This document shows positions 9,010 through 30,197 of a DNA stretch of 64,000 bases, piece by piece. This stretch comes from Cladocopium goreaui (lineage: Eukaryota; Sar; Dinophyceae; Suessiales; Symbiodiniaceae). Where the stretch lies: NCBI GenBank assembly GCA_947184155.2, contig CAMXCT020003680.1, positions 186,001-250,000 on the forward strand, read 5' to 3'. Every line of letters starts with the position of its first letter. Position 1 is the stretch's first letter. Made by a program: the position numbers and the translations under genes. Under the pieces are notes generated by a model. That model saw only the letters and a list, made by a program, of their open reading frames with translations. It was not told the DNA's origin and searched no databases.

Positions 9010-9670
9010 TTTCCATCCAACGCCAGATGGCTCTCGCCATCAACAATTGCATTTTGCAAAATTCACCGAATTAGATCAGTGAACTGAATTGGATCGATAC
9101 ATAGTCCATTGAGCTGTCACCGTGTAAGAGAGAAAGCAAACAGCGAAAACAACAACAAAGCAAAACACACCAAAGAACCAAACAAAGAAAAACACAAAAC
9201 AGAAACCAAAAAACAGCACGGCTGGTGATCAGCTGATCAGTTCATAGGCATCAGCAATGTACGAGAAAGATGATAACATTGTATCACCAAGGGATTGGTG
9301 TGGCAACGGTTCAGCAAACAACCGAACAACAAGACCACAACAATGCCATACAGAAATCTGTAAGCCAGGAAGCAACAAAAGCACAATGCGGAAACCAAGG
9401 CTCCCCCCAGCCAGGAGCCTCGAGATCACAGAGAATATGCTCACAGATCCATGGATAGGATCCATAGGCCAGTGATGACTTATTCATGTGGCTCATGGAA
9501 ACTAAAAATGAGGGGTGGTGAAACGAACTGTGAAAATCGATCTAAGGTGAAACGTCAAGAAACTACAGGCGGTCAGGGGCCACTCACGTGTGCTTTGTCT
9601 ATCATCAGCCTTGAAGGTCTAGTACTCTTGCCAGAAGTCTTCATGAGGAAGATTCGGTAAGTTGGCACCT
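9010..9670. other. Left flank of the copia-type element
   Basis: Includes an A/C-rich stretch (about 9125-9215) but no gene or RNA I can support. This is the presumed pre-insertion flank of the LTR retrotransposon. Confidence 0.5.
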
Positions 9671-9789
9671 TGAACCTACTTGAACATCTTTAAACCTATC
9701 TTGGAACAATGCATGTGCATGTGAACATTTAGGAAACCATTTTAAGTTTGTAGGAACCGATCTGTGAACTATAGAACCCATAGGAACCT
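9671..9789 (+). repeat. 5' LTR, first part (interrupted)
   Basis: Matches 29677-29795 of the 3' LTR, with one difference seen (T for G near 9727). It is cut at 9789 by the DIRS-like element and resumes at 19396. Identity with the 3' copy actually begins at 9666 (CACCT); 9671 is chosen as the start because it begins with TG. Confidence 0.85.
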
Positions 9790-10197
9790 GACAGTTTGGG
9801 TTACCAAAGTGACTGTTTGGAAGCGTTGGGTTTTGGGGTGGGTGGCTGGGGCGCTGTTGTTGGCCGTCGCCTTTCGCGCTGCCGCGTTCCTTCCTCTCTC
9901 TGCTCCTGCTCCCGCGGCGATGTTAAGGAAGGGTGTTGATGATTGCTTCCGCGTTGCGAGCGACATGTTCGTTTAGTTTCAGTCTGGTTTATTTTGTTGC
10001 CTTGAGTTGTTGCCTGTTTAACCTCTTTGTTACTGCCTCAGTTTCAGTTTCAGTTGTGCATGCCTGTGAAGGTTTTGTTTATGGTTGTCAGTGTTAGGGT
10101 TTAGTTCGTTTGAAGTTACTGTTTACTGATTTATGAAACCCCAGGGTTCGAATTTTTTATACCTTTTCTTGCAGTTTTAGCTGTTCAATTTTTTAGT
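9790..10197 (+). repeat. Split direct repeat A1 (5' end of element 2)
   Basis: 408 bp beginning GACAGTTTGGG, repeated without a difference I could see at 18222-18629. It contains GTTTCAGTTTCAG-type motifs and probably the promoter, which I cannot locate. Confidence 0.95.
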
Positions 10198-10230
10198 AAG
10201 AGGGGCGCTACGCATGCCTCACGGCCGCAC

Positions 10231-12255
10231 ATGGTCGGAGATGAGTGGGCAGGGCTCAGTTTTCTGGGGCCGAAAATCCTGAGTACAGCTGCACAACTGT
10301 ATAAGAATCCATCTTCCTTTGCAAACGCTTTTGACACCGAACTTGAGGCACAAGAAGTGTTCAATCAGTTAGCTGAATCAACAGGTTTGGATGCTCAGCA
10401 TTTATCTGGTGAAGCTGCAACACGGTTGGTGGAGTGGTCAGTGTCAAGGCAGTTTGTTTTCAAACGACAGAGGCGTGCGGTTGCAGTTGAGCTTGAGTGT
10501 AGTTTGTTTGCAAAGAGGGTGGATGCACCTGTGGAGGCCTCAGATGCATATGAAACCATGGTCAAAGATGACCCAAAGCATGCTTTAGAAGTTGCGAAAC
10601 GTGTTTCCAAACAACGTAAGACTGCTGGCACGAACAGGGCAGAGCTGGAGGAGTCATTGAGGACCAAGTTTGCGCTGGAGCTTGCAACAATCATCAGTGA
10701 AGCTGGACTGCCAGTGGTTTATCAGGTACAACAGTTTGATGACCCCAACAAAGCATGGAAACGGATTTTTGGGGCCCGCAGGGGCAAGACTTTGCGAAAC
10801 AGGTTTCGTAGCTGGTGCAAGTATAGGCTATGGCTGGTTGCGTATGCAGGGGTCTTGTGGCCACGTTCAGTTGCAGATTTGGTGAATTACATTGAGGAAT
10901 GCATACAGTTTGGATGTGCCCTGTCAATACATACAGAGCTGCAGGCATCACTTGTGCTTCTTGAAAGGTGTGGCAGAGTCCCGGAGTGCAACCAGCTCTC
11001 CATGGATCCGACGTGGAAAGCTCATCTACATAGCTGGAGCCAGGAACTGAGTACAAACAGCAGACCACGTGGGTCAGCGCCACCTTACACTGTATCAGTT
11101 TTGTTGGCACTGGAGTTGTTTGTCATGGACGATCAGAGGGACTATTATGCACGTGTCATTGCATGGACCATTTTGGTTGCAACATGGGGTTGCATGCGTG
11201 TGGATGACATCCAGTGTGTGATGCCAGAAACAATGCGGCTTTCACCAAGAGGTTTCACGGTCCGCATGTCGCGCACCAAGACTACAGGGCCTGGCAAAAT
11301 CCATGGGCAGGTCCATGCATTTGTACACAGAAGTATTTCGCTTTCTGGCCATGACTGGATGGAGGAAGGGTTACAACTTTTCAATCATGAAAGTGCGATC
11401 TTCCCCAGGGACTATTTGATTCCAGCGCCTACAGCTGACTGGCGTGCAATGAGGAAGAAGTTGGTTGAACCACCGCAGCTGGCCAACTATTTCAGGATGG
11501 TGCTTCAGATGCTTGGGACCCCGAAGTTTGAGGATGGCCGGTGGCGTGTGAACGCCAACATGGAGCTGGTTCCAGCTGAGCTGTCGCTTTTCTGGAAGGG
11601 GCATAGTGCCAGGCATTTTCTTCCACAAGCGTCGGCGGCTATTGGATGTGACAAACATGACAGGGATTTTCTTGGCAGGTGGTCCATAGGACGTGTTGGG
11701 TCCAATGCATACCTTTTGACATCGCGCCAGATCACTGAGAGAATCCAACAACAGGTCATGCAGTCTTTCTATGGTGAGGGCGTCACCTATGACGAGAACG
11801 AGCTCTTGGACAACCTGCGTGAATTTGCTGAGAAGGCAGACTTGAGTGGGCAGCGGATCAGGCGCAGGCATAAAATGCTGCCATTGTCCAGGGCAGAGGA
11901 CCTGATCAGACGTGGCGACGAGGAAGAGTCGGAGGATGAGAACATCCAACAACAGGCTGAAGGTGAGCATTTTGCTCCCGATGACCCTGATGAGGGCATG
12001 ACCTACTTCGTCACAGTCTCGAGGAGGACAGGCTTCAGGAGACTGCATGTGACTGGAAAATGCCATGTTCATGCTGAAAGATGTCAACAGACTGAGAGTG
12101 TCGAATCGGTCACATGCACCAGTTTTGATGCGATTTGTAGGGTATGTAAACGTTTCTTAAAGGAACAAGTTGAATCAGGGTCTGACAGTAGCAGTTCAAG
12201 TGATGGCTCATCGTCATCAACGAGTGCGGAGACCTCAGGTGACGAGCCACTTTAA
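10231..12255 (+). CDS. Tyrosine recombinase of DIRS-like element 2
   Basis: The 674-residue protein probably integrates the circular element DNA by site-specific recombination. The catalytic set of the tyrosine recombinase family is visible: Arg323 in GCMRVDD, His458 and Arg461 in the HSARH box, and Tyr494 in GSNAYLL, with FLGRWS between. The C-terminal part (about 580-650) holds a small Cys/His cluster (GKCHVHAERC, CRVC), then a Ser-rich acidic tail. The start at 10231 is the first ATG after A1; an earlier start or a leader exon cannot be excluded. The gene lies before the gag-like and RT genes, which differs from the gag-first or RT-first order usual in DIRS and Ngaro elements. Confidence 0.88.
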   Translation: MVGDEWAGLSFLGPKILSTAAQLYKNPSSFANAFDTELEAQEVFNQLAESTGLDAQHLSGEAATRLVEWSVSRQFVFKRQRRAVAVELECSLFAKRVDAPVEASDAYETMVKDDPKHALEVAKRVSKQRKTAGTNRAELEESLRTKFALELATIISEAGLPVVYQVQQFDDPNKAWKRIFGARRGKTLRNRFRSWCKYRLWLVAYAGVLWPRSVADLVNYIEECIQFGCALSIHTELQASLVLLERCGRVPECNQLSMDPTWKAHLHSWSQELSTNSRPRGSAPPYTVSVLLALELFVMDDQRDYYARVIAWTILVATWGCMRVDDIQCVMPETMRLSPRGFTVRMSRTKTTGPGKIHGQVHAFVHRSISLSGHDWMEEGLQLFNHESAIFPRDYLIPAPTADWRAMRKKLVEPPQLANYFRMVLQMLGTPKFEDGRWRVNANMELVPAELSLFWKGHSARHFLPQASAAIGCDKHDRDFLGRWSIGRVGSNAYLLTSRQITERIQQQVMQSFYGEGVTYDENELLDNLREFAEKADLSGQRIRRRHKMLPLSRAEDLIRRGDEEESEDENIQQQAEGEHFAPDDPDEGMTYFVTVSRRTGFRRLHVTGKCHVHAERCQQTESVESVTCTSFDAICRVCKRFLKEQVESGSDSSSSSDGSSSSTSAETSGDEPL

Positions 12256-13271
12256 TCATGCAGATTAGATGAACCAGTTTGGGATTCCATGTTGCACTGG
12301 TGTTTGTTAGAATTTTGCTGTTGTCACCCAATGCAAGTTAGTTGAACCAGTTTGAGATTCCAGGATGCACTGGCGTTTGTTAGAATTGTTCGGTTTTCCA
12401 CCTTTCATCTTGTTTGGTCTTGATCCTTTCGTTTCACGTTGCAGGTGTCTCAGATTGGAAGTGCACACAAGTGCATCCGCGTCACAAAGACTGGGCGTGT
12501 GGGCACTGGCCTTGGCGTGAGTTCACCAAGGGTTTTATTTTAAGGAGTTTGAACTCAGGTCAAATCAGTTTCATGTTTTGTGATGTGACCCACTGCAATC
12601 ACGACATGTCAGTAGCACAGTGCCACCACTTTTACATGTTCACTCGTGGGCCGAAGTGGCCTGAAACGCCTGCATCACTGGCACCCGCCTCGGAATGGTT
12701 CAGACTGGTGAATGGTTTCACTTTGACAGTTTGTGTTTTCGGTGCTGCGTTTCTGTTATTTAGATGTGTTCATGTTTCACGTTACCTCAACATGTCAGTT
12801 TGGCGGCACCCGTCAGTTGGCAGGCCAGGTAGGTAGGGAGTGACCCAATGCACACAATGATGTGGTCACCAACTCAGCTTGGCGGAGGTGTCAAAAGAAA
12901 TGCCTTCAGAATCAGTGGCTGCCTTGCAGAATTCTGGGAATTCAGTTTGAAAATCTTTGCAGTCACCCAATCATGTGATTCAGTGAACATGTCAGAGGGC
13001 GGCAGCACACTTTATGTTGCGGCACGGAGCCACTTCAGATTCAGAGTCAGATTCAGGGCGCATTTAATTTGATTGAATTTCAGGCGATTGAACGTTTCCA
13101 GTGACTGCATTTCATTCCTCAGGTTACGTGACAGGTCTGATTGGTTTCATGTTTCGATGTTTGATTGTTATTTTACTTTAGTTTTGCTTGACGGTTCAGA
13201 TGATTTTCACTCCACTTTTGTTCAGGTCACTTTCATCCATCTTAGTAAGTTAGCTAACTTGGTCATTTGCG
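12256..13271 (+). other. Noncoding spacer between recombinase and gag-like ORFs
   Basis: One kilobase with no convincing frame. A partial tandem duplication of about 70 bp is visible (GAACCAGTTTG at about 12270 and 12343). It may hold a promoter, an intron or RNA-processing signals for the downstream ORFs. Confidence 0.55.
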
Positions 13272-14564
13272 TTGCCGACAATGGTTGACGACGCTGCACG
13301 ACGGGCTTATATTTCAGAGCATGTCAGCTCGGACCTGCAGTACATTTGGCAAGAGGCTGATGTGTCCCTCACCACTCAACACACTTTGGCCCAGCACTAC
13401 AAGACCATGAAGGTCTTCAGCTCTATGTGTGATACAAAGGCCGAAGTGCGCGATGCATTGCGCACAGACTTCCGTATAGATCCAACAGCAAGTCCTGAGA
13501 CCAGGGCTGACGTGGCCAAGGTGTTGACTGCGTGGGAGCTCTCGCGCACAATGACTGCAAAAGAACAGGAACTTCAAGCTGAAACGAAGGTGCTTGGTAT
13601 GCCACGAGTCTTGCAGCATACAGAACGTCAAGCAATGGTCAAAGCAGTCGAAGTTGTCTTGGGTAAGTTACAAGACGTGGAGATACCCAGCAATGAGTAC
13701 CTGGCCTTGAAGGTTGAGGAGTGCGAAGCAAATGAGCCTCAAGCGCTGGGGCTTGATGAGATCTCATCCAGGGCTGACACAAGCTCTTCAGCGTTACAGA
13801 CGTCTCTGGATTCGTCAGGCCATGTCAGGGTAACAAAGGTTAAGACAAAGGGCCGTCTTCCTGAGGACACAGAGTCCCAAGCTTTGAAGTTGGAAGCAGT
13901 CAGCTGGCTTTGCATGTCAGCAAAGTTTCGAAACAAAACATGGCTTCACGGTCTGGAGTTACAGCACTGGTCGAAATACACAGAGTACTTGCTGGGTGAA
14001 AAGGTTTTGGGATTGAAGTTCAACGTGGAAGGCCAATCACATGCAGTGAAGCCGCCTTGGGCTGTCATTCTCAGCTATGAGCAGAAGATGCGGAAAGAGG
14101 TGTTCAAGCTTGTCCAGGCAGGCACACACACAGTTGCGGAAGGCCTGACTGCCGTCATCAAAGACGCGGAGATCAAGGAGGCGCATTTCACAGCGCCGAT
14201 TGCCCTTGGTGTTGGATGGAACAATCAGCGACCATCAGTTCAGCCCAACAAATGGCAGCGCACAGGCTTCAAAGGGAAATCCAGTTTCAAAGGAGCACCA
14301 TCGAAAGGTGGCAAAGGCAAAGGTAAGTCCAGCAAGGGCTCCAGGGACTTCAATGGCAATAGTCTGGTAACACACACACCAGACGGCAGAGAACTATGCT
14401 TTGCGTTCAACGCCCAAGGGTGTTCAGGAAAGTGTGGAAGAGTCCATGCTTGCAGGATCAGAGGATGTTATGGCAAGCATTCGGCACGGGAACACCATAA
14501 GTACTCCAACAACAAACCTTCGCAACAAGGAGGCGATGACAAGAGCAAGGTTGGCGATGAGTGA
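13272..14564 (+). CDS. Gag-like protein with CCCH zinc finger, DIRS-like element 2
   Basis: A 430-residue protein. The first 300 residues are helical and charged without a motif I recognise. A basic Gly/Lys/Ser-rich linker (about 340-360) precedes a Cys/His cluster with spacing C-x7-C-x3-C-x3-H (starting CFAFNAQGC, about residue 377), followed by CRIRGCYGKH. Such a basic zinc-finger C-terminus suggests nucleic-acid binding, as in retroelement Gag proteins. The role is inferred from position and composition, not from a recognised Gag domain. The ORF ends 51 bp before the RT polyprotein ATG. Confidence 0.72.
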   Translation: MPTMVDDAARRAYISEHVSSDLQYIWQEADVSLTTQHTLAQHYKTMKVFSSMCDTKAEVRDALRTDFRIDPTASPETRADVAKVLTAWELSRTMTAKEQELQAETKVLGMPRVLQHTERQAMVKAVEVVLGKLQDVEIPSNEYLALKVEECEANEPQALGLDEISSRADTSSSALQTSLDSSGHVRVTKVKTKGRLPEDTESQALKLEAVSWLCMSAKFRNKTWLHGLELQHWSKYTEYLLGEKVLGLKFNVEGQSHAVKPPWAVILSYEQKMRKEVFKLVQAGTHTVAEGLTAVIKDAEIKEAHFTAPIALGVGWNNQRPSVQPNKWQRTGFKGKSSFKGAPSKGGKGKGKSSKGSRDFNGNSLVTHTPDGRELCFAFNAQGCSGKCGRVHACRIRGCYGKHSAREHHKYSNNKPSQQGGDDKSKVGDE

Positions 14565-14615
14565 CAGGCAGAACGTGGGGCTTCAAAGGAGGGTCATGGA
14601 TCTGTCAAGCAGACC

Positions 14616-17600
14616 TTGAGGGTTCTCTATTTGTTTGCAGGAGCCCCACGTCGAGCAGATATCAATTCCTTTTTGCATGGATACTCCCAGGCGCAGAATT
14701 TTACCCTGCATGTCCGCGAAGTGGACATTGAACGCTCTGAGTCTGATGACCTCAGCCGTGATCAGCTTTGGGAGGAGATTTTTACAGAGATCAGAGACGG
14801 CAAATATGATGTGTTGATTATGTCACCTCCTTGTGGGACATGGTCGCGAGTTCGATTCCAGTGGCAACTTCATCCAGGTCCCCGACCACAGCGCAACAAG
14901 TCTTGGCCATGGGGTTTTCCATGGCTGTCCGCAGCACAGCGTAAGAAAGTTGATTTGGCAAATTATTTTGTTTCTCAAACCATACGCGCAGCACACCTTG
15001 CTTTTGAAGTTGGGGCCTTCTTTTTGATTGAGCACCCGGAGGACCTAGGCACAGTCAATGGCGAGGCGCCAGCATCCATTTGGCAGCTGGATGAGATGCG
15101 TGACCTGCAGATCATAACCAATGCAACAACCTGGGCGATCTTTCAATGCGGGTATGGAGCTGACACTAGCAAGCCTACAAGGTTTCTTTCCTCAATACCA
15201 GGCATCAAAGCAAGGTTTACCAAATGGCCAGCCTTCGATGAGCAGGGCAAATATGTGGGGCCATTGCCTGCTAGGTGCACCCACACGCGCCATGTCCGGC
15301 GTCTTATTGGCAAGGACTCTCAGGGGCGCTGGGTCACAGGACCCGCCGCCTCATATCCACCTGGCTTGTGCAAATACTTGGCCAACCTCGTGGTCTCCGT
15401 CCTTCGGAAAGGGGGCACCCACGAGGTAACAAAAGTGGTTGAGAATACAGCTTCAACTGCAGCTTCGAAGGTGGTTGACCCACCAACCCATGAGGTAACA
15501 AAAGTGGCTGAGAATGCAGCTTCAGCTGCAGCTTCGAAGGTGGTCGACCCACCAACCAGTCTTGTGCGGCCCATGGAGGTAGACAAGTGCGGAGGCGACC
15601 CAAAGCATGCTGATGGTGTTTTCAATCGGTTGGTGCATGAGAAGCCGGCGGCACAGACCAGTGGGCATACAAAGTTGACGGAGGTTCAACACACCTTTTC
15701 AGACTCCAACTGGGGTAGGCCTATGATGGTTGAATGGTCTGGCGAAGAAAGGGAGATCACTGACGGTTTTGGCTTGTGCTCACCTAACAGGTGGGCTCCT
15801 GATTGCAGAGGAGTTGGGCAAAGCGCTCAAGCGCGTGACATCAATGACCGTGTCCATGACTTGCTGAAGGGTTTTGTTCATGAACAATTGGGAGACCTCC
15901 GCATGATGGCGTTCAAGCTTGCTACAGGGAAGCTGGCCGAGTCACCGTTTTGCAAGGAGGCACTTGACAGGCTCAGAAAACGCTGGGCCGCCCTTTTACC
16001 TGCTCCCAGTGGTGCGCTGCAGAAGGCAGAAGGCCAGCCCTTCCTGTTAGACCTCATGGCTCAGACTTTGAAGATCCAAGGCGACCCTGACTTTGAAATA
16101 TTGGTGGCCTCAAAGGACTCCTTCGCGACGGGCGTCCCTGTAGGGTATGAAGAGCCCATACCCCCTGCTCCTGCAGTTTTCCGCACCAGGACGAAACAGA
16201 GCAACCTGGATGCTTCTGAGTACATGGAAGAGGCACGTAACTATAAGTCTGCAGTCGAAAATCAAGAAGGCCTTGAGAACAAATTTAGGGAGGACGAGGC
16301 TCAGGGCATGATGTATCCCACCACCATGGGGGTCTTGAGGGAACGCTATCCTGGTAAACCTATTCTTGTAGCTGCCATGGGAGCCATCAAGAAGCCGGAC
16401 GGGAGTGTTAGGCCCATACATGATGGAACACACTTCGTCCAGGTTAACAATGGGATACAGTTTACAGACAAGCTGGACTACCCTGGGCCGCCGGATGTTG
16501 CTGGGGCTGTTCGAGCTGCAAGGGACACACAGGACTCCTTCTTCACTGTTTCGGCCGACATAAAGGCGGCCCACAGGTTGGTCAAGATCCGCGAGAGCGA
16601 CTGGAGACTTTTGGTTTGCAAGGCCAATTCAGATTCAGAAGTTTGCTGGGTCAACAAAGTGGGTACTTTTGGGGTGTCCAGTGCGCCCTATTGGTGGAGC
16701 AGATTGTTTGGCCTGGCTGGGCGGCTTGTCGCAAGGGTCCTTTTGAATAGATGGGTCGTACAGCTCGTGTACGTTGACGACCTCCATGTTGTTTGCGTTG
16801 GTGAGGAGAAGTTTGTGACCCTGTGGATGGCAATAGCGGCATATGAGGCCTTAGGCACCCCTTTTGGTTACAAGAAATTTTCAGGTGGCTTGGATGTCCA
16901 GTTCGTTGGGTATCGTGTTGACTATATGAACATTTCAGTGGGCATCAGCGAGGCACGTGGGCAGTGGTTGCTCACCTTCTTGCGGGAGCTGAGAAGAGAT
17001 GGTTACACTGTCCATGTCCATCGATTTGCAGAATTTCTTGGTAGGCTTGGCTTTACGTGCCGGGTGTTGCTCTGGTTGAAGCCGCACTTGGCTCCCCTTT
17101 ACTCATGGGCTTCAGCTGTCAGCAAGAGTACAGTCGCTACAGCGCCTAAGCTGGTCAGGCTTGTTTGCATGTTCTTGGAAAAGCAGTTTGAGGAACAGAA
17201 GTTCATGTTTTCTTGCTTGAAGCCGCAACGGCTGACAAATGAAGTATTCAGGACGGATGCGAAGTGCGAAAACAACCTTGTGGTGTTAGCTGGTTATCAT
17301 TTCCCTGATGGCAAGTGGTTCTCTGTGCGTGTCACGCCCCGTGATGCGCCTTACCTCTTCAAGGAGAATGGGGATAGTGAGTGGGCGTCGGCACCTGCAG
17401 AACTTCTTTCAGTTTTAGTTGCGCTTCAGCTCTTTGGCTACTTAGAGCCCAAGTCGGGAAGAACATGCATCCGGCTGTGGGTGCAGAGCGGAACTGACAA
17501 CCGCTCTATCGACTTCCTGTCCAGGAAGAATTCGACTACACGCTGGCCCCTCACATTAGTTAACATGCAACTGTCGCACTGCTTGATGAGGGCCGGTGTC

Positions 17601-17831
17601 AGAATCAGCTTAGCTTGGAGGCCGAGGGATCAGAACACTTTGGCCGATGACCTGACGAATTCCAGGTTTGGCGATGTCGATTTGAACAAGAGGATTGATG
17701 TCGCGCTTTCAGATTTAGATCTTTCCTTGCTTTTGGACCTGTGGGAAGCGAGGCATGAATTCTTGGACCGCGACTCTTGGGCGGTGTATGGAAAAGGGAG
17801 AGACAAATTTGAGAAATCAGCTTGGGGTTGA
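14616..17831 (+). CDS. Methyltransferase-like / reverse transcriptase / RNase H polyprotein, element 2
   Basis: A 1071-residue polyprotein. Residues 1 to about 190 resemble a cytosine-C5-type methyltransferase: LYLFAGAPRR (AdoMet loop position), REVDIE (acidic strand 2), MSPPCGTW with Cys73 in the catalytic PPC position, and IEHPEDLG (Glu139). Residues 270-315 contain a 23-residue sequence in two copies (69-bp period, 15420-15557). RT follows: KPDGSVRPIHDG, SADIKAAH (Asp648) and YVDD (719-722). The C-terminal RNase H includes TDNRSIDFLSR (Asp961) and RPRDQNTLADDLTNS. DIRS elements often carry a methyltransferase, but usually an adenine-type one placed after RT-RNase H, so an N-terminal PPC-type domain is notable. 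Whether it is catalytic is unknown. Confidence 0.88.
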   Translation: MRVLYLFAGAPRRADINSFLHGYSQAQNFTLHVREVDIERSESDDLSRDQLWEEIFTEIRDGKYDVLIMSPPCGTWSRVRFQWQLHPGPRPQRNKSWPWGFPWLSAAQRKKVDLANYFVSQTIRAAHLAFEVGAFFLIEHPEDLGTVNGEAPASIWQLDEMRDLQIITNATTWAIFQCGYGADTSKPTRFLSSIPGIKARFTKWPAFDEQGKYVGPLPARCTHTRHVRRLIGKDSQGRWVTGPAASYPPGLCKYLANLVVSVLRKGGTHEVTKVVENTASTAASKVVDPPTHEVTKVAENAASAAASKVVDPPTSLVRPMEVDKCGGDPKHADGVFNRLVHEKPAAQTSGHTKLTEVQHTFSDSNWGRPMMVEWSGEEREITDGFGLCSPNRWAPDCRGVGQSAQARDINDRVHDLLKGFVHEQLGDLRMMAFKLATGKLAESPFCKEALDRLRKRWAALLPAPSGALQKAEGQPFLLDLMAQTLKIQGDPDFEILVASKDSFATGVPVGYEEPIPPAPAVFRTRTKQSNLDASEYMEEARNYKSAVENQEGLENKFREDEAQGMMYPTTMGVLRERYPGKPILVAAMGAIKKPDGSVRPIHDGTHFVQVNNGIQFTDKLDYPGPPDVAGAVRAARDTQDSFFTVSADIKAAHRLVKIRESDWRLLVCKANSDSEVCWVNKVGTFGVSSAPYWWSRLFGLAGRLVARVLLNRWVVQLVYVDDLHVVCVGEEKFVTLWMAIAAYEALGTPFGYKKFSGGLDVQFVGYRVDYMNISVGISEARGQWLLTFLRELRRDGYTVHVHRFAEFLGRLGFTCRVLLWLKPHLAPLYSWASAVSKSTVATAPKLVRLVCMFLEKQFEEQKFMFSCLKPQRLTNEVFRTDAKCENNLVVLAGYHFPDGKWFSVRVTPRDAPYLFKENGDSEWASAPAELLSVLVALQLFGYLEPKSGRTCIRLWVQSGTDNRSIDFLSRKNSTTRWPLTLVNMQLSHCLMRAGVRISLAWRPRDQNTLADDLTNSRFGDVDLNKRIDVALSDLDLSLLLDLWEARHEFLDRDSWAVYGKGRDKFEKSAWG

Positions 17832-17887
17832 CTTGCAACCCGATTCAGTTTCAGTTTCAGTTGTGCAGCCTCGTTGCTTTGCAAAAA

Positions 17888-18221
17888 GGGGGAGCTTTGC
17901 CCTCGGCTGTGTTGAGAAAACCAAACGGATGGAAAGCGATTTGGATGAATGTCCGCTGATTGGACTTGAGACCTTGTTTCAGTGCCGTCTACCACCGATA
18001 AAAAGGCGTGTGACAGCAATCCACTTTCAGTGATCTTGGTTTTGTTTTCCGCATGTGCATTCGAATTTCAGTTGTGGCTTGTGATGTCAGTTTCGTTTTC
18101 ACGTTGTTTCAGTTTTATGTTTTCCTCGAACATGGCGATGCGCGCGTTTGTTTTAGTTCTGTTTCAGTTTTAGTTTCTTTGCGCACCGCGCCTCCTGCCT
18201 TACCCCAACGTTGTAGAACAG
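17888..18221 (+). repeat. Split direct repeat B1 of element 2
   Basis: 334 bp starting GGGGGAGCTTTG and ending GTAGAACAG, repeated at 19062-19395 (offset 1174). It starts 56 bp after the RT-RNase H stop codon. Confidence 0.95.
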
Positions 18222-18629
18222 GACAGTTTGGGTTACCAAAGTGACTGTTTGGAAGCGTTGGGTTTTGGGGTGGGTGGCTGGGGCGCTGTTGTTGGCCGTC
18301 GCCTTTCGCGCTGCCGCGTTCCTTCCTCTCTCTGCTCCTGCTCCCGCGGCGATGTTAAGGAAGGGTGTTGATGATTGCTTCCGCGTTGCGAGCGACATGT
18401 TCGTTTAGTTTCAGTCTGGTTTATTTTGTTGCCTTGAGTTGTTGCCTGTTTAACCTCTTTGTTACTGCCTCAGTTTCAGTTTCAGTTGTGCATGCCTGTG
18501 AAGGTTTTGTTTATGGTTGTCAGTGTTAGGGTTTAGTTCGTTTGAAGTTACTGTTTACTGATTTATGAAACCCCAGGGTTCGAATTTTTTATACCTTTTC
18601 TTGCAGTTTTAGCTGTTCAATTTTTTAGT
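18222..18629 (+). repeat. Split direct repeat A2 of element 2
   Basis: 408-bp copy of A1 (9790-10197), directly abutting B1. In split-direct-repeat elements, the B1-A2 junction recreates the joined ends of the circular intermediate. Confidence 0.95.
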
Positions 18630-19061
18630 CCACACCCTCCCACCCTGGTATTGGGTGTTCAATTTCCTTTCCATACGTCTTTTTGATGCAACAGCGCAAT
18701 CCCTTGAGACTGGCATGGGATGCTGACCGTTATGACTATGTCAGCATTCAAATTTTCTTTTTGGTTACGTGGAACTTATGGGACCATACTGGACCATCAC
18801 GTTTTGCCAACGTGCTTTGCTTCTCATTCCTGGATGACCGTGATTTACAGACTGTATGCTGCACTTGCTATGGCATTTACATTGATCGGGATGACATCTA
18901 CCTTCGGCTTGACGAGTATAATCGCTCAGAGGCGCTTTGTGGCACCCACTGATCACCGGGCTTTTCTGCTTGTCCATTGGACTCCTTCTGGAACTGGCCT
19001 TTCATTCTCCTTCATTTCATGTTTTGCAACGGATGCAATCAACGGCACTGGACTTGGATCG
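18630..19061 (+). other. Spacer between A2 and B2 of element 2
   Basis: 432 bp unique to this position. Classical split-direct-repeat elements have A2 and B2 adjacent, so this insert is unexpected. ORFs of up to 137 codons cross it, but they run into B2 and have no motif. Confidence 0.6.
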
Positions 19062-19395
19062 GGGGGAGCTTTGCCCTCGGCTGTGTTGAGAAAACCAAAC
19101 GGATGGAAAGCGATTTGGATGAATGTCCGCTGATTGGACTTGAGACCTTGTTTCAGTGCCGTCTACCACCGATAAAAAGGCGTGTGACAGCAATCCACTT
19201 TCAGTGATCTTGGTTTTGTTTTCCGCATGTGCATTCGAATTTCAGTTGTGGCTTGTGATGTCAGTTTCGTTTTCACGTTGTTTCAGTTTTATGTTTTCCT
19301 CGAACATGGCGATGCGCGCGTTTGTTTTAGTTCTGTTTCAGTTTTAGTTTCTTTGCGCACCGCGCCTCCTGCCTTACCCCAACGTTGTAGAACAG
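19062..19395 (+). repeat. Split direct repeat B2 (3' end of element 2)
   Basis: 334-bp copy of B1. The element ends at 19395 (AACAG); base 19396 resumes the interrupted LTR (ATAGGAACC). Confidence 0.95.
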
Positions 19396-19788
19396 ATAGG
19401 AACCAGGTAGGAACCAATTTGGAACCAAATGGAACCAGCTTGTGCATGGAAGAGCTTGGAGATGGATTTTCGTTTGTTTTTGTGGTTTTTGGTGTTTTTG
19501 GATGTTGTTTGACCCATGTCTTAGGAACTTGATGTTGTGAACTTATTTGGTAGAAGTTTTGTAGGTTATTTGTGAGTTTGAGCTGAAGACGTTTTATTTG
19601 GAGAAGCTGGAAGAACGTTTTTGAAGCTTGAGAACTCTTTTGAAGTAGTTTGAGAACGTTTGAGTGTCACTGCGTTTTACTCTGCACGACTCTCTAAGAA
19701 GAAGAGTGACTGAGCTGTCAAACCTGTGTGGTTTGGCTCAAGTCCGAGCTGTGAAAAAGAGCTGCCACGCCGCTCTCGTGTTTTCACA
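19396..19788 (+). repeat. 5' LTR, second part
   Basis: Matches 29796-30197 of the 3' LTR apart from a few substitutions and small indels, the largest a 9-bp difference near 19655. It ends TTTTCACA, directly followed by the primer binding site. Confidence 0.92.
19732..19742 (+). other. Spliced-leader-like 11-mer in the 5' LTR
   Basis: TTTGGCTCAAG is identical to the last 11 nt of the dinoflagellate spliced leader as I know it. It ends 46 bp before the LTR end and also occurs in the 3' LTR at 30141-30151. It may be a relic of a trans-spliced RNA copied back into DNA, or chance. Confidence 0.5.
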
Positions 19789-19803
19789 TGGTAGCGGAGC
19801 CCC
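19789..19803 (+). other. Primer binding site (tRNA-primed minus-strand start)
   Basis: TGGTAGCGGAGCCCC begins at the first base after the LTR. TGG pairs with a tRNA 3' CCA end, and the sequence resembles the TGGTATCAGAGC initiator-Met primer site of many copia elements. The actual tRNA cannot be named without the host tRNA set. Confidence 0.75.
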
Positions 19804-19920: not shown

Positions 19921-22900
19921 ATGTCTGGACCTGTGCCAATGAGTCCAAGTACGGCGCCAGACAGCAATGTGAGCCAAGGAAGTGCTGCCAGTGCTCCTGC
20001 AGGAATGGTCTCAGGAAATGAGGGGGCTGTTCACGCAGGAACAACGCCTGTGTACAACATAGCAGATCCCCTACAAGGAAGTGGTGATCCATGGGCAAGC
20101 ACGACACCTTGGCTGAGCTTTTCACCAGGCACTACCCCTGCTGTTTTGCCAAGTACTCCAGTTGGATTGCCAGGAAGCTAATCCAGTCCTGGAAACAGTG
20201 GACAGAGTGGCAACACAGCTGCCACGTTTGGAATGCCGCCAGGGTTTTTAGATTCTGGTTTCACTGGTCCTGGAGGACCAGCACAGGCATCCACCACTGC
20301 CACAGCAGTAGACCCGGTGATGGCACAGATGCTGCGCCAACAGATGTTGCTCACCCAAGGGGTGATGGATCTTCTCTATAGGACAGGACCTGGACTTCCT
20401 CAACAACCAGTGCAGCAGACACCAACAGTAGCGCAGAACTCTACTGGACCGTCTGAGAGGTTGACAATGGATACAAAGTGGATTCCAGCAGCGCCACTGC
20501 CTGACTGGAAGTCTTGGAACAACAGGGCAAGAGAGTTAGCTGGTTTCAAGGGTTGGTTAGAGAAGTTTGCATCGTGGCTGTGTCTTGTCCACGATAGCTA
20601 TGCGCAAGAGCTCAAGGAGGCTATGAACTTACCATACCCTGTGGTGATTGTGAATCAAGACCAAGCAATTCGAAGCCGTCGATTGTTTCATTTACTTCAG
20701 CAGAGTTTTTCTGGATACTCGAGGGTAGACAACGTGGTGAAATCTCAGATTGCATTCTATGGCATTCAGGAGGCAAATGGTTTTGAGCTTTTGAGATTGC
20801 TGCGCAGGGAGTTCAGTTTGATGAGCCGTCCAGAGGCGCTGCAATACAGAGAAGCCTGCCTGAAGTACACGGTGAAGAAGTCAGAGAGGCATCTTCTTAT
20901 GGATGTACTGAGAGAGATTGGGGCTGAGATCGAAGGATTTCACTCTATGCTGGAAGCTTCACTGATCGCTGGTCAACTGACTGACTTGCGCATCACTGAG
21001 GGGGATCAATACCTTCTCTACCTGAGAAACTTGCCAGACAAGGTAGCAGAGTTCGTGCAGCTTCACTGTGGTGCAACAACAGTGGCCAGAGTTTGGGAGT
21101 CTGTGGTAGCATACCACACACGTATGAGACTCACCAACGACCTGGACAGCAAGGTGCATTTCGCCACAGGGCCAAAGCAGGGCTCTGAAGGCATCACTTG
21201 CCACAACTGCGGCAAACGAGGACACATAGCTCGAGATTGCCCACAGCCTGTGAAATGCAGCCATTGCGGCAAGTCAGGTCATGCAGCTAAGGACTGCTGG
21301 GCCAAGGATCCCAGCAAACGACCTGGAGCTTCCTCAACACCCAAGCCTGTTGCAAAGGCCAAGGCAAAGCCTGCTGCAAAGAGCAAAGGCAGCAAAGGCC
21401 GTGGCAAAGGTCGAGGGAAAGGAGGAAAGTTTCGAGAGGTTGAAGAAGGTGAAGAGCCTGCAGAGGCTGAGGAGTCTCAAGAACCAGAAGGTGAGCAGGA
21501 GGGTGGAAACCAGGCTGCTATGGTAGTCAAATCTTTTGCAGTGAAGACTGGATCAGATGCTGGTGGGCCAAAGGGGGCCACAGGGACATCGAGTACTGAG
21601 AGACCGGTGACACACCACCTGAGCAGCACACTGCAAGATTTTGTAGGTAGTGTAGGGATAGGAGATCCTAAGACCTGCTGGCTGGTAGACTCAGGGGCTA
21701 CATGCCACATCGTTTCTGAGAAGTGGGTCAAGCACTACACTGTGAGTTATGAGTATCCTGGTCCATCTCCAAGCTTGAAGGGTGCAGGAGACAATGATCT
21801 GCCTGTCAAAGGGGTTGTAGATCTGGAATTCAAGGTAGGTAAGACGAAGATTACCATGAAGCGTGTAGTAGTGGTAGGAATTCCTTTGAATCTGATCTCA
21901 ACTTACGCCCTTTTGGAAACTGGTTGGAAGACAGTCCTTGGCAATGCTGAGGAGAGTGGATTGTTTTTGAAGAAATTGAAACTTCCTTTGAAGATTTCTG
22001 AGAGAGCATGGTGGCTGAAAGTCAGTTTGCTTTCAAAGCACAAGAGTGGTGTGAAGGGTTCTGGACCAGCACCGATGGACTTGAGCACCATGAACACTGG
22101 AAACACTGTGAACACTGACAGCACTGAAACGAAACAAACCAAACGAAACACTTGTTGTGGTTGTAGTTCAGTTGCAGCAGTTGTCCCTGAGGATGTTGTG
22201 GCTAAGGACCTGGTAACTAAGGGAACTAAGGACTCTTTGACTAAGGACCCTGTGAATCATGTTGCCACTCAGGAGGTTGCGCAGGTCACCAAGGGTAGGT
22301 CAGGAGGTTCTGCCAAGGTCAAGGCCAAACGTCGGGAGCTTCAGATGAAGAGTGCAGACATGTTGCAGTCGTTTTCCTATGTTTGTAGGATGTTTCATTT
22401 TGGAAGCAGTCGCCTTTTTCAGCATGTTTTTGATGAACATGAGCCCAATACCATTGAAACAGACGTTTTGTTTAAGACAAACGTTGAAACAAACGATGAA
22501 ACGACAGACATTGAAGATGAGTTCATGTCATGTTGTGCATCTGAAACGACAGACAGTGAAGATGAGTTCATGTCATGTTGTGATTTTTCAGAGTTTTGTC
22601 AAGAGGATCATGGCACATCTGAATGCATGGAGTGGAAATACCATGAAGGGAGGACAGGTTCAGGTCAATCTGATCGGAAATGCAGGTGTGACTGGACGTT
22701 TGTGGACCCTTGTTTTAGGATGTTGCGTGGTTTTCCTCAGGTGGAGGACTTGACACAGGATGAAGTTGACGACAGTGACGTCATGGGTGATAGGCCTCAG
22801 GCAGGTGAGGTTTCTGAAGTTGGTTCCCCATCACTTGCCAATTCAGAAGATTTGGAGGGTTGGGGTCCCCATGAACCTGGTTTGCCAGAACGCCCAGACA

Positions 22901-25839
22901 CACCAGATGGTCCAGAGGGATCAGATCTGGAGTGCAGTGTCCCTGAACTGGGTGATGGACGTCTCAGGCTGGAACATGAGTGCAGGGGCCATTGGCCTTA
23001 TGACAGGGGATGTGATGATTGCGTGCAGTCAAGAGGACGCACACCTGCTAGGAGAGTAGGTCATAAGCATGAAACTCCCCACAGTCTTGCTGCTGATTTC
23101 CTTTTTGTAGCAGGGAAACCTTGGAAAGTTCTGGTCTTTTTGATGGTTCACACTGGGATGGTTGGCATGGTGGTTTGTGGTGGTGACAAAGAACGTGACG
23201 TGCAGTCAACTGCAGCTGTTCTCAATGAGATTGGTGTTGGAGGGTTGTCTGTAGAAGTAGCTACTGACAATGAGGCAGCACTGAAATCTTTGGTTGAAAG
23301 AGGCCTTGCAGCTAGTTCAGCACGAGGCTATCACTGGAGAAACATTTCAGAGGCAAGACCCCAGGCAAAAGGCATCGAGAGAGCCGTTTGCATCATGAAA
23401 GAAGGGATCTATGCCAATTGGTTGGCACTTGAACGCCATTGCAATGCCAGGATTGCGTTAGAATCACCCCTTTTGGGATATTTGGTGGGACATGTCTATA
23501 GGACGTACAACGCATACTGTGAGGGAAAGGCTGGGAGCACCCCCTTAGAACGTTTGAGAGAGAAACGGGGAGGTCAGGCACCTAGGTCTTACCCTTTTGG
23601 GGCAGTTGGGTTTTTGAAACCAATTCACCCTTCAAAATGGCCTGGTCAGCGTTTGGTGTTGTGCCATTTTCTCGGCATGAGATATGTGACTGGTGGAGGT
23701 TGTTTGGGGTACCCATTTTCTGTTGATGCTGAAGGGTATCGTGAGGTGATCAAAGGTCACTCTTTCAAACTGAAGGAACCTCTCCAGTATGATGTTGAAT
23801 CTCTTTTTCCTCTTTTGGCAGGCGCCAGGCCACAGGACTTCCCAGAACCACGTCTTGAGGCGCCACAGGCAGAACAGGCCTTACCCCCACCTGATTTTCC
23901 ACCAGAGTTGGATCCACCAGTTCTTCCAAGGAACGAGGTGTCTCCACAGCCCATTGCAGATGGAACTGAAGGGATGGATGTAGATGCAGGTGAGGTAGGT
24001 GAAGGTCCTGAGCCCATGACGATCGACAGGGTCGATGAGGGTTCAGAAGGGGAAGGATCTGAGGAGGAAGAAGGGGATGCGTGGTTGAACAACCTTATTC
24101 TTCAAACACAAGCTGATGTGTGGAACACTTTTTGTTTGAAAGAGTCTGGTTGTGTTTTCCCTGTTGGTGAGGGAAGTAGTGATTTCTTTGTAGAGGACTT
24201 TGGAGGTCAAAAGGTTCGAGTCGACATTCCTGAAAGTTCTTTTGACGAGCTCACTGGAGCTGCTTTGGACTTTGAACAGGTGAAACAGGGAATGAAGACT
24301 GAGGTACAGCAGCTTGAGCGACTTAAGGTCGGGCGCTGCCTTGTCGAACGGGATGGCCGGGCACTTGCTAAGGAAAAACAAGTCACGGTCTTGACCTCAC
24401 GTTGGGTATTGACCCAAAAGAACTCAGAAATCGTTCGGTGTCGCCTTGTAGTGCGAGACTTCGCTACGGGAGGGACCTCAGCCTTGAATGCTGGGATCTA
24501 CGCGCCAACGTCGTCGTTGGACGGGCTTCGTTGTGTGCTCGCAGTCTCCGTGGTGAAAGATCTCAGTTTGCTGACTGCTGATGTTTCTGTGGCGTTCATG
24601 CATGCGCCCGTGGAAGCTGAAGCTTGTGACTTAGTGTTACTTCCGGCGAACATTACAATCAAGGGATGTCGAGTGATTGCGTGGCTAGGGAAAGCCATGA
24701 ATGGGCTCAGGCGAGCCCCACTGTTGTGGTTTCTCGAATTGCAGCGGGTGGTGTATTCCATGGGAGGTCAAGACACCTTTGAGAATACTTTATTCAGGTT
24801 GCAGACGCCCCATGGAATGCTTTTAGTGCTGGTGTACGTCGACGACTTACTTGTCGCTGCTGAAAGTCCGCAAGAAGGTGAATCGTTCTTGCAACAGTTG
24901 CAGACTATTTGGCGAATAAAACTTACTGGAAGGATTCCAGCGCTTAAGAGAGGCGTCCTACAGTTTTTGGGGAGAACCATCTATCGAGAAAGGGATGGGG
25001 AATCCACCTTAAATCTGGGGGTAAGTGAGGCCTACATGACAGGGGTCATCGACAGTTGGCACGAGAAGTTGAAACCGAACGAGACACCGCCAAAGCTGGA
25101 AGAGATCTACAAAGATCGTGAGAAACAGGGCGAAGACACGCCTTTGACAGCGGAGGGTGAAGCACGGTACCGCAGGGTTCTGGGACAGTTGGCGTGGGCC
25201 GCGTTGTCCAGAGCAGATTTGTGTTTTTCAGTTTCATACCTTGCGCGATTCCAGTCGAAGCCATCAGGTGCAGCAGAAGCTTGTTTGCGTGCACTGTTGC
25301 GTTGGTTGTTGACGCGCCTTCACCGCGTGCAGATCATGCCTTCTCCGGAAGGATCGCCAAGCGTAGGACCGCGAAGCGTTGTTGGTTTCTGCGACGCGCC
25401 TTGGAATGTGGCCTCCGTGTCAGGGGGAGTCTTGATGTTCGAAGGTTGCTGCATCAAGGTGTTTTCTAGGAAACAGGAATGCCCAGCTTTGAGTAGCGCA
25501 GAGGCGGAGTTGTGTGCGATGACAGAAAACTCGAAGGAGTTAGTGTCGTTGGGAATGTTGTTGGAATCCATTTTGGATGGGATTCCGCTGACCATTTTGG
25601 GAACCCCGCAGTGTACAACAGGGACTTACCAGTTGGTTTTGCGCAACGACGCGACGGCCGCGATCAGCATAAGCTCAATGGAAGGGTTGTTGCGACGCGT
25701 CCGGCACATAGAACTTCGTGCGAAGTACATTCAAATGCTGGTGAAGAAGAAGCGTCTTTTGCTTGAGCACATCCCTGGACTTCAAAACCCGAGTGACGGT
25801 TTGACCAAGTCATTCAAGACTAGGGATATGCTGATTTAA
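19921..25839 (+). CDS. Copia-type Gag-Pol polyprotein (Gag, protease, integrase, RT, RNase H)
   Basis: The frame starts at ATG 19921 and meets a TAA at 20179-20181. It is then open for 1868 codons from Met 20233 to 25839, in the same frame, so the TAA probably interrupts one original frame. Numbering from 20233: two CCHC zinc knuckles at about 323 and 342 (CHNCGKRGHIARDC, CSHCGKSGHAAKDC), a basic linker, protease DSGAT at 486, an integrase zinc-binding region near 915 (HECRGH, CDDC), integrase catalytic Asp955, Asp1012 and Glu1049, RT with YVDD at 1535-1538, and RNase H with Asp1721, Glu1757 and Asp1806. Integrase before RT defines Ty1/copia. The single stop in an otherwise intact frame suggests a very recent defect or a downstream start. 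Confidence 0.93.
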
Positions 25840-27775: not shown

Positions 27776-29676
27776 GTGTGAGAAGATCGAACCAGAAAGG
27801 TTGGCCAGTTCCACAGAAAGGGAACAAGAGCTCTGAATGAGCTGATCTATGTTTTGGGATGACAGAAGCTGCAGCGTGAGTGTGCTTAGCTCGGAGAATA
27901 GGTTGTTACAGCCTCGAGGTTCACCCAGCTATAGCCAAGAGTGCAGAGCCGTGCAGCTGAGAGTCAAAAAGAGAGGATTGCAAGTCATTTGAACTTGATT
28001 GCAAGTCATTTGAACTGGATTGCAAATCATTTGAACTTGAATGCATCAGTTGTTTTTCATTTGCTTGCATTGTGTTGCTTGATGTACACGTTTTCATTGC
28101 AGAAGCCGTCCAAGAAACAACAGAAGCTGTCAGTTCAGAGCTGCTTGCATAAGCTGTGTAGGAAACCGTTGTCAGGGTATCCAGTTCTGTTTGCAGAAGC
28201 CGTCCAACTATCTTGCAGAAGCTGTGCATAGGTTTTGTAGGTGTTTGACAGTCGCAACAGTTTTGGATTTTTCATGTCTCGTGATGTCAATTCATGTGAT
28301 GTTCATTTCACTGTTTTGGATTTGATGTCTACTGTTTTCACTTCTAACTAGTTTGATGTCACTTGCATGCAGTTGGACACATGTGGACTCATTGGACGAT
28401 GTATGCAACAGTTTTCACAGTTGTCATGGTTGTGCAGTTCAACTTGTCGACAGTTTTTCACTGCTCTGTTTTTGGGATGTTCTTGCAACTTGTTGTACTT
28501 GATTTGAACGTGTTGCAAGTAACTTGAACTAAGGTACAACGATGATCCAATGATGGAGCTGTAAAAGGGTCTGAGAGATGGCAATGCCATATGAGACACC
28601 CTTGCAGCTGAGGATCATAACCTGTTTGTTTGTTGCATGTTCTTGGAACTTGGTTGAAGTTGTCTTGAACTTGAAGTTGAAGTTGATTTGAACTTGGTTG
28701 AAGTTGTCTTGAACTTGGCCTGTCGTTGAACTCTTCCTGAACGTTCTGTCCTTGTGTGTTGCAGTGGTTCTCATGTTGTGGACTTTCTCCATGGATCGTT
28801 GGTCACTGTTGGTTTGGCCTTATCTTCTGAAGGGTTTGAACCCCAGTGCACAACATGTTGGATTTGGAGGGTATCCATAACTGAACGTCCAGCGCTTAGC
28901 AAAGCCAATCCAGAGTTTTAGGACTCTTGGATATCACGTGGAATGCTTAGCACTATGGCCACTGTTCAGCGCTCAATGCATTCAGCTCAGCTACCAAGAC
29001 TTTGCTACACAAAGTTGGGCTGATAACCAGGGAAGTTGTAGAGGTCTGCAACTGCCAAGTTACAGGGTTTAGAAGCCAAGGTTCCAAGAGACGTGAAACC
29101 GTTGCCAAGCATTTGGAAAAACGGGTTCGAAAATTTGTTTCAGTTTGTTATGGGTTTTTGTGTGGATGATCCTAACTTGAGGGCTTAGGATTCCCAAGGT
29201 CACATGCCAGCGACATGGATACCTTGGTATCCTTTGAGGGTCTATCCCAATACCCAGAAAGACTGGACACCAAGGTCGTTTCCAGCGGAAGTACCATTGA
29301 TGCCAGTTTCCCCTTACTTTGATGAGATGATGATGACAAACGTGAGACAGTTTCAAATACCAAGGTTTCCAAAGTTGTGAACTCAGTTCCAAGCTGTGGG
29401 TTACTCAGAAAGAGACCAACCGACCATACCCCATAACCATCTTTCTGAGGACGCTTTAAAACCCAGGCCGTTTTCGAGTTTTCTGTGCGCTAGTTCCTAG
29501 CTTAGTTGTTGAGCATGGATCTTAGTTTGTGATGTCTGGAACTTAGTTGTGTGGGTTCAGAACTTAGTTGTCTTACAAACGGTATGGTAGTCTATAGGTA
29601 CTTCGGTGTACAGCACTACTGTCCAAGAAGGGGTGTGAAAGTTTGGTGAGAGGATGTACAGTGTACTGAACCACCT
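27776..29676 (+). other. Long noncoding 3' part of the copia-type element
   Basis: 1.9 kb without a convincing frame. There are short tandem motifs: CAAGTCATTTGAACT-type units near 27970-28040 and TTGAACTTGGTTGAAGTTG-type units near 28645-28720. No clear polypurine tract lies directly before the 3' LTR; the nearest purine run is GGTGAGAGGA at about 29645. Confidence 0.55.
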
Positions 29677-30197
29677 TGAACCTACTTGAACATCTTTAAA
29701 CCTATCTTGGAACAATGCATGTGCATGTGAACAGTTAGGAAACCATTTTAAGTTTGTAGGAACCGATCTGTGAACTATAGAACCCATAGGAACCTATAGG
29801 AACCAGGTAGGAACCAATTTGGAACCAAATGGAACCAGTTTGTGCATGGAAGAGCTTGGAGATGGATTTTCGTTTGTTTTTGTGGTTTTTGGTGTTTTTG
29901 GATGTTGTTTGACCCATGTCTTAGGAACTTGATGTTGTGAACTTATTTGGTAGGAGTTTTGTAGGTTATTTGTGAGTTTGAGCTGAAGACGTTTTATTGG
30001 AGAAGCTGGAAGAACGTTTTTGAAGCTTGAGAACTCTTTTGAAGTAGTTTGAGAAGTTTGAGAACGTTTGAGTGTCACTGCGTTTTACTCTGCACGACTC
30101 TTCTAAGAAGAAGAGTGACTGAGCTGTCAAACCTGTGTGGTTTGGCTCAAGTCCGAGCTGTGAAAAAGAGCTGCCACGCCGCTCTCGTGTTTTCACA
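29677..30197 (+). repeat. 3' LTR (uninterrupted copy)
   Basis: 521 bp, from TGAACC to TTTCACA. At 29790-29800 it carries the intact sequence GGAACCTATAGGAACC, which is the empty counterpart of the DIRS-like insertion site in the 5' LTR. The spliced-leader-like 11-mer is at 30141-30151. Confidence 0.92.

What the first reader, a model, noticed from the sequence alone, without database searches (positions are those of the whole stretch)
9790..19395. Complete DIRS-like element with recombinase-first gene order and split direct repeats
The element has A1, three ORFs, B1, A2, spacer, B2, with A1=A2 (408 bp) and B1=B2 (334 bp). The tyrosine recombinase ORF comes first, then a zinc-finger gag-like ORF, then RT-RNase H. 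DIRS and Ngaro/PAT families usually have gag first and the recombinase in the middle or last. The 432-bp insert between A2 and B2 is also unusual. The combination may mark a distinct lineage.
Basis: partly seen in the sequence, partly recalled or inferred. Interest (0 to 1): 0.75.

Follow-up and report, generated by a model that had tools for sequence, protein, structure and literature searches.

The report
Recombinase-first DIRS retrotransposon in Cladocopium
An intact, recently moved jumping element of a coral-symbiont alga copies itself through RNA and inserts with a Cre-like recombinase; its genes stand in an unusual order, it hides a DNA-methylase-like domain, and one relative carries the trace of an RNA tagged by the host.

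Summary
The 9,606-bp element sits in the 5' LTR of a Copia element whose 3' LTR is the empty site: a precise insertion without target duplication. 18 of 20 fetched stretches show the full order, the other two are partial, in families down to about 34% YR identity; YR and RT-RH trees largely agree, so YR is no nested element. The A2-B2 spacer ranges from 43 to 761 bp. Symbiodinium DIRS with A-coding-B-A-B repeats and shuffled integrase/Pol order were reported in 2018 (PMC5890265): a new variant of a known kind. Host very probably Cladocopium goreaui.

The parts
9790..10197 (+). A1, left split direct repeat
   Evidence: 408/408 identical to A2; exact boundary from the empty site
10164..10175 (+). 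Spliced-leader acceptor (TTTTCTTGCAG|T): AG ends at 10174; the 23 nt 10175-10197 are the part of A1 kept in the trans-spliced RNA
   Evidence: copy L025 has the DinoSL joined at the equivalent base
10202..10213 (+). Conserved GGGGCG-type motif just after A1 (possible primer-binding site; inference)
   Evidence: GGGGCG-like sequence follows A1 in the 15 copies printed, GGGACG in L029 and L032 among them
10231..12255 (+). Tyrosine recombinase ORF (674 aa); R323, K350, H458, R461, W484, Y494 conserved (catalytic roles inferred)
13272..14564 (+). Gag-like ORF with C-terminal Cys/His cluster (from 14397); stop TGA followed by C
14562..14564 (+). In-frame TGA-C between gag and Pol, proposed readthrough stop
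14616..15401 (+). Pol N-terminal C5-cytosine-methyltransferase-like domain (PPC and EHPED motifs)
15402..16295 (+). Variable Pol linker with a 69-bp tandem duplication (15417-15554)
16296..17831 (+). Reverse transcriptase (YVDD motif at 16770) and RNase H
17888..18221 (+). B1; starts with a G-run (possible polypurine tract; inference)
18204..18262 (.). Dyad across the B1|A2 junction, proposed recombinase (att-like) site
18222..18629 (+). A2
18630..19061 (+). A2-B2 spacer (432 bp); a 137-aa ORF (18720-19133) runs across it into B2, without a Pfam match above cut-off
19062..19395 (+). B2, right end
9666..9789 (+). Left part of the host Copia 5' LTR
   Evidence: 123/124 identical to the 3' LTR
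19396..19788 (+). Right part of the host Copia 5' LTR
   Evidence: 394/409 columns identical with 11 gap columns, in an alignment that starts 6 bases inside B2
29672..30197 (+). Copia 3' LTR = empty target site

Best explanation
It is an intact, recently inserted DIRS-order (tyrosine-recombinase) retrotransposon of a large dinoflagellate family, related in plan to the reported SymbioDIRS elements, with the order A1-YR-gag-(TGA)-[C5-MTase-like/RT/RH]-B1A2-spacer-B2. Shown: anatomy, exact ends, insertion without target duplication, conserved order, purifying selection where it could be measured, C5-MTase fold in a model, conserved gag-TGA-C-Pol arrangement, one spliced-leader-headed copy. Inferred: the pre-RNA is trans-spliced to the dinoflagellate leader at an acceptor 23 nt before the end of A1, which gives the YR message and removes the first 385 nt of A1; gag and gag-Pol come from the downstream frame by UGA readthrough; reverse transcription restores the lost start of A and the end of B from the intact B1A2 unit and closes a circle with two B|A junctions; YR then recombines a B|A junction (a dyad) with a genomic half-site like RACNW, leaving no duplication. 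The MTase domain probably methylates the cDNA or its target.
Against: The spliced leader rests on one copy (L025), whose left flank does not fit the RACNW half-site and whose gag holds an internal TAG, so it may be a dead end inserted another way; the acceptor was not traced in the distant families. The dyad test failed for 3 of 9 (L032, L033, L035) and was weak for L039 (56/500 shuffles) and modest for the window (15/500); a contiguous-stem test was not significant in the window (190/300) or L033 (39/300), though stronger in L028, L037 and L040 (10, 6 and 5 of 300). A stem after the TGA is significant in only 4 of 9. Many dN/dS pairs are saturated, and several finite ones have dS of about 2 or more. 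Foldseek TM-scores for the MTase are low (0.28-0.44 by query for the 26 matches at E<=1e-3), and PF00145 is matched by only 2 of 44 Pol proteins, below threshold. Three of 15 copies have a further in-frame stop within 300 codons after the TGA (L030, L038, L040). No RNA, protein or activity data. Primer and polypurine sites are by position only.
Confidence: 0.72

Rival explanations
1. It is simply a SymbioDIRS-Dnmt3 element as published in 2018, with the DNMT domain diverged beyond Pfam; nothing new but the sequence.
For: Same host family, A-coding-B-A-B repeats, DNMT in Pol beside RT, YR in a separate ORF, shuffled order of integrase and Pol (PMC5890265 sections 6-7); C5 fold here with DNMT3A/B among the best matches.
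Against: Those elements were sought with PF00145 (section 15) and fall within eukaryotic Dnmt3; here PF00145 gives no hit at E<=1 in the window protein and sub-threshold hits in 2 of 44 relatives. By that method these elements would probably have counted as DIRS without DNMT, which the paper also reports. The published sequences were not compared.
Confidence: 0.3
2. The YR ORF belongs to a separate nested element, so the order is an accident.
For: A gap of about 1 kb lies between YR and gag.
Against: Same arrangement in families with 34-100% YR identity and largely matching trees; no repeats of 30 bp or more bound the YR alone.
Confidence: 0.02
3. The leader in copy L025 marks ordinary mRNA retroposition by another element (LINE or LTR), not the element's own cycle.
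For: DinoSL-tagged retrogenes are common in dinoflagellates (PMC6050394, passages); L025's left flank does not fit the half-site.
Against: L025 ends exactly at the normal B2 end without a poly(A) tail. Either way it shows that element RNA is trans-spliced in A1.
Confidence: 0.45
4. The A2-B2 spacer is functional (a gene remnant or a needed sequence) or peculiar to this copy.
For: Ngaro is described without it (A1-[ORFs]-B1A2B2, PMC8547959 passage); a 137-aa ORF crosses it; the spacers of L033 and L035 share 535 bp at 79%, and the ten compared begin C-rich.
Against: Present at 43-761 bp in the 17 copies with both A2 and B2, so not peculiar to this copy; no Pfam match above cut-off for the ORF (best E 0.02); among ten spacers only three pairs match at E<=1e-3, and L034, close kin of L033, differs from it after 56 bp.
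Confidence: 0.1

Closest known systems
SymbioDIRS-Dnmt3 and DNMT-less Symbiodinium DIRS (de Mendoza et al. 2018, PMC5890265; sections 6, 7, 15 and passages read)
   Same: Symbiodiniaceae host; A-coding region-B-A-B; separate YR ORF; DNMT-type domain in the Pol ORF; order of integrase and Pol shuffled between types; RT poorly matched by Pfam
   Different: Methylase domain here is not recognised by PF00145; YR-first with gag between YR and Pol, gag-TGA-C-Pol, spliced-leader trace, dyad and half-site are not in the sections and passages I read
PAT-like elements (Pat1, Toc3, Kangaroo)
   Same: Split direct repeats A1-B1-A2-B2, an MT-type domain, zinc-finger gag in Pat1 (PMC4157794 section 7)
   Different: MT of the DIRS class is Dam-like N6-adenine (PMC5890265 section 6) and follows RT-RH in DIRS1 (PMC3266345 passage); gag first in DIRS1 as described there, and in PAT as recalled; in nematode-form Pat1 and Kangaroo the internal repeats lie between MT and YR
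Ngaro-like elements
   Same: Split direct repeats, YR, RT-RH
   Different: No MT domain; internal repeats downstream of the YR (PMC4157794 section 7; PMC8547959 passages)
DIRS1-like elements
   Same: YR, circular intermediate, insertion without duplication (PMC3266345 passages)
   Different: Inverted terminal repeats and ICRs, absent here; gag first

Membership tests
DIRS order (YR retrotransposons) | YR in place of a DDE integrase, together with RT-RH | tested here: met
DIRS order (YR retrotransposons) | Insertion without target-site duplication | tested here: met
   empty site in the Copia 3' LTR, one insertion
Split-direct-repeat groups (PAT, Ngaro, VIPER) | A1-ORFs-B1A2-B2 with A1=A2 and B1=B2 | tested here: met
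   with an extra A2-B2 spacer
DIRS1-like | Inverted terminal repeats and internal complementary region | tested here: not met
   the only inverted pair of 20 nt or more (seed 10) is 23 nt, internal, 78% complementary
PAT-like | Dam-like (N6-adenine) MT domain after RT-RH | tested here: not met
   the MT-type domain is C5-like and lies before RT; Pfam gives only RVT_1 for Pol at E<=1, and by reading few residues follow RNase H
PAT-like | RT/YR phylogenetic position with PAT | not tested
   no reference sequences reachable
Ngaro-like | No MT domain; YR downstream of RT | tested here: not met
   YR first and a C5-MTase-like domain
VIPER-like | Kinetoplastid element grouping with VIPER/TATE in RT and YR trees | not tested
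   host is a dinoflagellate; no reference sequences
SymbioDIRS-Dnmt3 | A-coding-B-A-B in a Symbiodiniaceae genome | tested here: met
SymbioDIRS-Dnmt3 | PF00145 DNMT3-type domain in Pol | tested here: inconclusive
   C5 fold present, PF00145 below threshold in 2 of 44 relatives and absent in the window protein
SymbioDIRS-Dnmt3 | Clusters with the published SymbioDIRS RT or DNMT sequences | not tested

The most novel reading that the evidence does not exclude
Dinoflagellate YR retrotransposons have been rebuilt around the host's spliced-leader system. The element RNA is always cut and capped by DinoSL inside A1, so each RNA loses the first 385 nt of the element, and the split-repeat layout (intact B1A2 inside, 23 nt of A kept as an R-like stub) regenerates the lost end. 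Placing the recombinase first puts it directly behind the leader, while Pol is made only by UGA-C readthrough from gag, and a hidden C5 methylase precedes RT. Such elements would then also be candidates for the unidentified machinery that makes DinoSL-tagged retrogenes.
Probability: 0.25. Interest if true: 0.78.

Novelty: new variant of a known kind. Interest (0 to 1): 0.6.

Why it matters
It gives a fully bounded element with its empty site and many relatives, from which a testable replication scheme follows: trans-splicing, readthrough, repair of the ends from B1A2, circle, half-site integration. A C5-methylase fold that Pfam does not see suggests that methylase-bearing retrotransposons in dinoflagellates are commoner than counted in 2018. 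PMC6050394 (passage) says that the kind of retroelement behind dinoflagellate retrogenes is unknown; an element RNA carrying DinoSL makes a YR element one candidate.

Tried and rejected
Rejected: DIRS1-like (no inverted terminal repeats); nested separate YR. Tried without result: NCBIfam and PHROGs (no useful hit); solved-structure sequence search with profiles A1 and A2 (0 matches at E<=0.01); relatives in viral contigs with the Pol protein (none); tRNA genes as possible primers in 16 of the 20 stretches and the window (none); remote named relatives by a profile of 11 divergent YRs (55 proteins, none with an organism name). The first YR search gave 96 proteins, one named Symbiodinium sp. CCMP2592; the Pol search gave 323, best 120 listed, with Cladocopium goreaui and Symbiodinium sp. 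CCMP2592 the only organisms I saw named. A contiguous-stem list at the junction came out empty; the gapped dyad test replaced it. The script stopped partway; the remaining copies were redone with hand-set coordinates. In one search only the window slice starts right after the stop (L028 2 nt late, three upstream of it; 2 of 5 significant); one search repeats it properly. One search was an input error, repeated properly. Papers: PMC5890265 sections 6, 7, 15 and passages; PMC4157794 section 7 and passages; PMC6681497, PMC8547959, PMC9210276, PMC3266345, PMC6616646, PMC6050394, PMC8226300 passages only; the rest search listings. 'SymbioDIRS' occurs in 1 paper of the library; the other literature searches were made, some with capped lists (53: 20 of 46 shown; 54: 20 of 116; 88: 12 of 148; 106: 8 of 92). 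That readthrough or a spliced leader is unreported for YR retrotransposons rests on these alone.

Not done because unanswered: genome-wide search with Pol, gag, the A repeat and the leader junction in G000, so copies whose YR is absent or very different, other gene orders, and further spliced-leader copies could not be counted. Counts rest on the 20 stretches, chosen from the 68 matches (878 candidates, 66 scored: a lower bound; some matches are pieces of one copy); six rows had 99-100% identity, one being the window itself. L021 and L023 share identical flanks and were counted once in the half-site test, but both stand among the 20 and in the trees. L025, L027, L029 and L030 were left out of that test for a missing or truncated A1, L026 and L036 for no repeats found. 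L021, L023, L026, L027 and L037 were not in the TGA count.
Full report
Observation. The repeats are exact: A1 9790-10197 and A2 18222-18629 agree in 408 of 408 positions, B1 17888-18221 and B2 19062-19395 in 334 of 334, with B1 abutting A2. Three long ORFs lie on the + strand: YR, gag-like, RT-RH. The identical repeats imply a recent insertion.

Ends and target. The flanks 9666-9789 and 19396-19788 are the two halves of a Copia 5' LTR; the matching 3' LTR lies at 29672-30197, past the Copia pol ORF 20233-25839, and is uninterrupted. Against this empty site the element is a precise 9,606-bp insertion between T9789 and A19396 with neither duplication nor loss. A TGGTAGCGGAGCCCC sequence follows the LTR at 19789, as a Copia primer site would (recalled).

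Host. The window is G000:C3680:186001-250000 of a 1.17-Gb assembly. Protein P0105, named by its source as Cladocopium goreaui, lies on a contig of 170,217 bases, the length of C1204, and its four pieces match the C1204 copy L028 at 89-100%, three of them at 99-100%. The host is therefore very probably C. goreaui.

Copies. A YR search of the genome gave 68 matches from 878 candidates of which 66 were scored. I fetched 20 stretches of 10 kb. Order YR-gag-MTase-RT was seen in full in 18 of 20; in L026 the first element is cut by a second one that runs off the stretch, and in L036 no RT was found. Some of the 18 have broken frames, and L029 has a reversed piece inside RT. In L031 a 32-residue gag piece precedes the YR, probably of a neighbouring element; no other stretch shows gag before YR. 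The sample was chosen by YR, so elements with another order and an unrelated YR would be missed. YR and RT-RH trees of 17 rows give the same main clades; among these L032 moves, joining the L031/L033-L035 group in the RT-RH tree alone.

Spacer. A2-B2 distances: window 432, L022 432, L024 433, L025 about 434, L027 and L028 110, L029 and L032 435, L030 761, L031 167, L033 604, L034 584, L035 562, L037 50, L038 53, L039 43, L040 57. Among ten spacers compared, three pairs match: window-L028 in the first 27 bp, L033-L034 in the first 56, L033-L035 over 535 bp at 79%. A 137-aa ORF that crosses the window's spacer has no Pfam match above cut-off. L021 and L023 (the same locus twice, by their flanks) have B1 followed directly by flank, lacking A2, spacer and B2, as B1 x B2 recombination would leave.

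Recombinase. The model (pLDDT 83.3, pTM 0.65) matches Cre, Flp and Xer recombinases; R323, K350, W484 and Y494 are invariant and H458 and R461 nearly so in 56 sequences. dN/dS 0.05-0.06 in the pairs with finite, non-zero dS.

Gag-Pol junction. In 16 copies examined of 21 held, the stop that ends gag is TGA followed by C (TGA-CAG, -CAA, -CAT, or TGA-CTA in L030 and L035); Pol lies in the same frame in 15, L029 being the exception. In those 15 no ATG occurs before the MTase domain starts; three of them have a further stop in Pol within 300 codons (L030, L038, L040). UGA-C, and above all UGA-CUA, is a known leaky context (recalled). A significant stem within 90 nt downstream occurs in 4 of 9. Readthrough is the simplest reading; reinitiation or non-AUG starts are not excluded.

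Spliced leader. Copy L025 (also seen as L006) begins not with A1 but with TCCGTAGCCATTTTGGCTCAAG, the complete DinoSL, joined to the base after the AG at window 10174 and followed by the normal element to the exact end of B2. It is the only place within 3 mismatches in the 362,886 bases then held, overlaps counted. So element RNA is trans-spliced in A1, and 23 nt of A1 stay in that RNA. A similar acceptor is seen in L028 (by eye); distant families were not resolved.

Boundaries of A and B. After A1 a GGGGCG-like motif follows in the 15 copies printed (GGGACG in L029 and L032); after A2 a C-rich start follows in the 15 printed. B starts with a G-run in 13 of 17; L031, L037, L038 and L039 lack it or have a weaker one. 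By position these could be primer-binding and polypurine sites; then B+A is an LTR-like unit and the integrated element is a permuted form of a two-LTR circle. This is inference.

Integration site. The B|A junction holds a dyad: in the window CCCAACG-N6-AACAG|GACAGTTTGGGTTACCAAAGTGACTGTT-N6-CGTTGGG. The best dyad centre falls at A +11.5 to +12.5 in 6 of 9 representatives (shuffles reaching the value: window 15, L028 5, L030 0, L037 1, L039 56, L040 0 of 500), not in L032, L033, L035. Fourteen independent left flanks show purine at -5 (14), C at -3 (11) and A/T at -1 (14), resembling the AACAG arm; right flanks show no clear preference. I read this as a recombinase arm and a half-site in the target.

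Known or new. The broad plan is in PMC5890265. The order YR-gag-Pol is a circular permutation of gag-Pol-YR, which may explain how it arose through the circle (idea, untested). The methylase fold hidden from Pfam, the TGA-C junction, the spliced-leader trace and the dyad with its half-site are what I would call new, within the limits of the searches named.

Noticed in passing
window 28-2364: A second, different RT ORF cut by the window's left edge, with part of the same methylase-like domain before RT (profile A1 positions 152-273, E 3e-4); no second YR was found in the window by profile A2.
   Followed up: partly
window 9666-30197: Copia element with an 1868-aa pol ORF (two zinc knuckles, RVT_2) carrying the DIRS insertion in its 5' LTR.
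   Followed up: partly
L022 (oriented) 9771/9772: B2 followed directly by another A repeat: tandem or nested element at a B|A junction.
   Followed up: partly
L021 and L023: Two contigs with identical element flanks; both lack A2-spacer-B2, as after B1 x B2 recombination.
   Followed up: partly
L026: A copy with 93% YR identity interrupted near the end of its gag by an element of the 47-53% identity family.
   Followed up: no
L033, L034, L035 spacers: L033 and L035 share a 535-bp spacer sequence (79%), while L034, otherwise much closer to L033, differs after 56 bp: spacers seem to be exchanged.
   Followed up: no
P0093 and P0217-P0269: A separate large clade of related YR proteins, mostly from unnamed metagenome sources; hosts unknown.
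   Followed up: no
window 12258-12398: Two 68-nt direct copies (84%) in the gap between the YR and gag ORFs.
   Followed up: no
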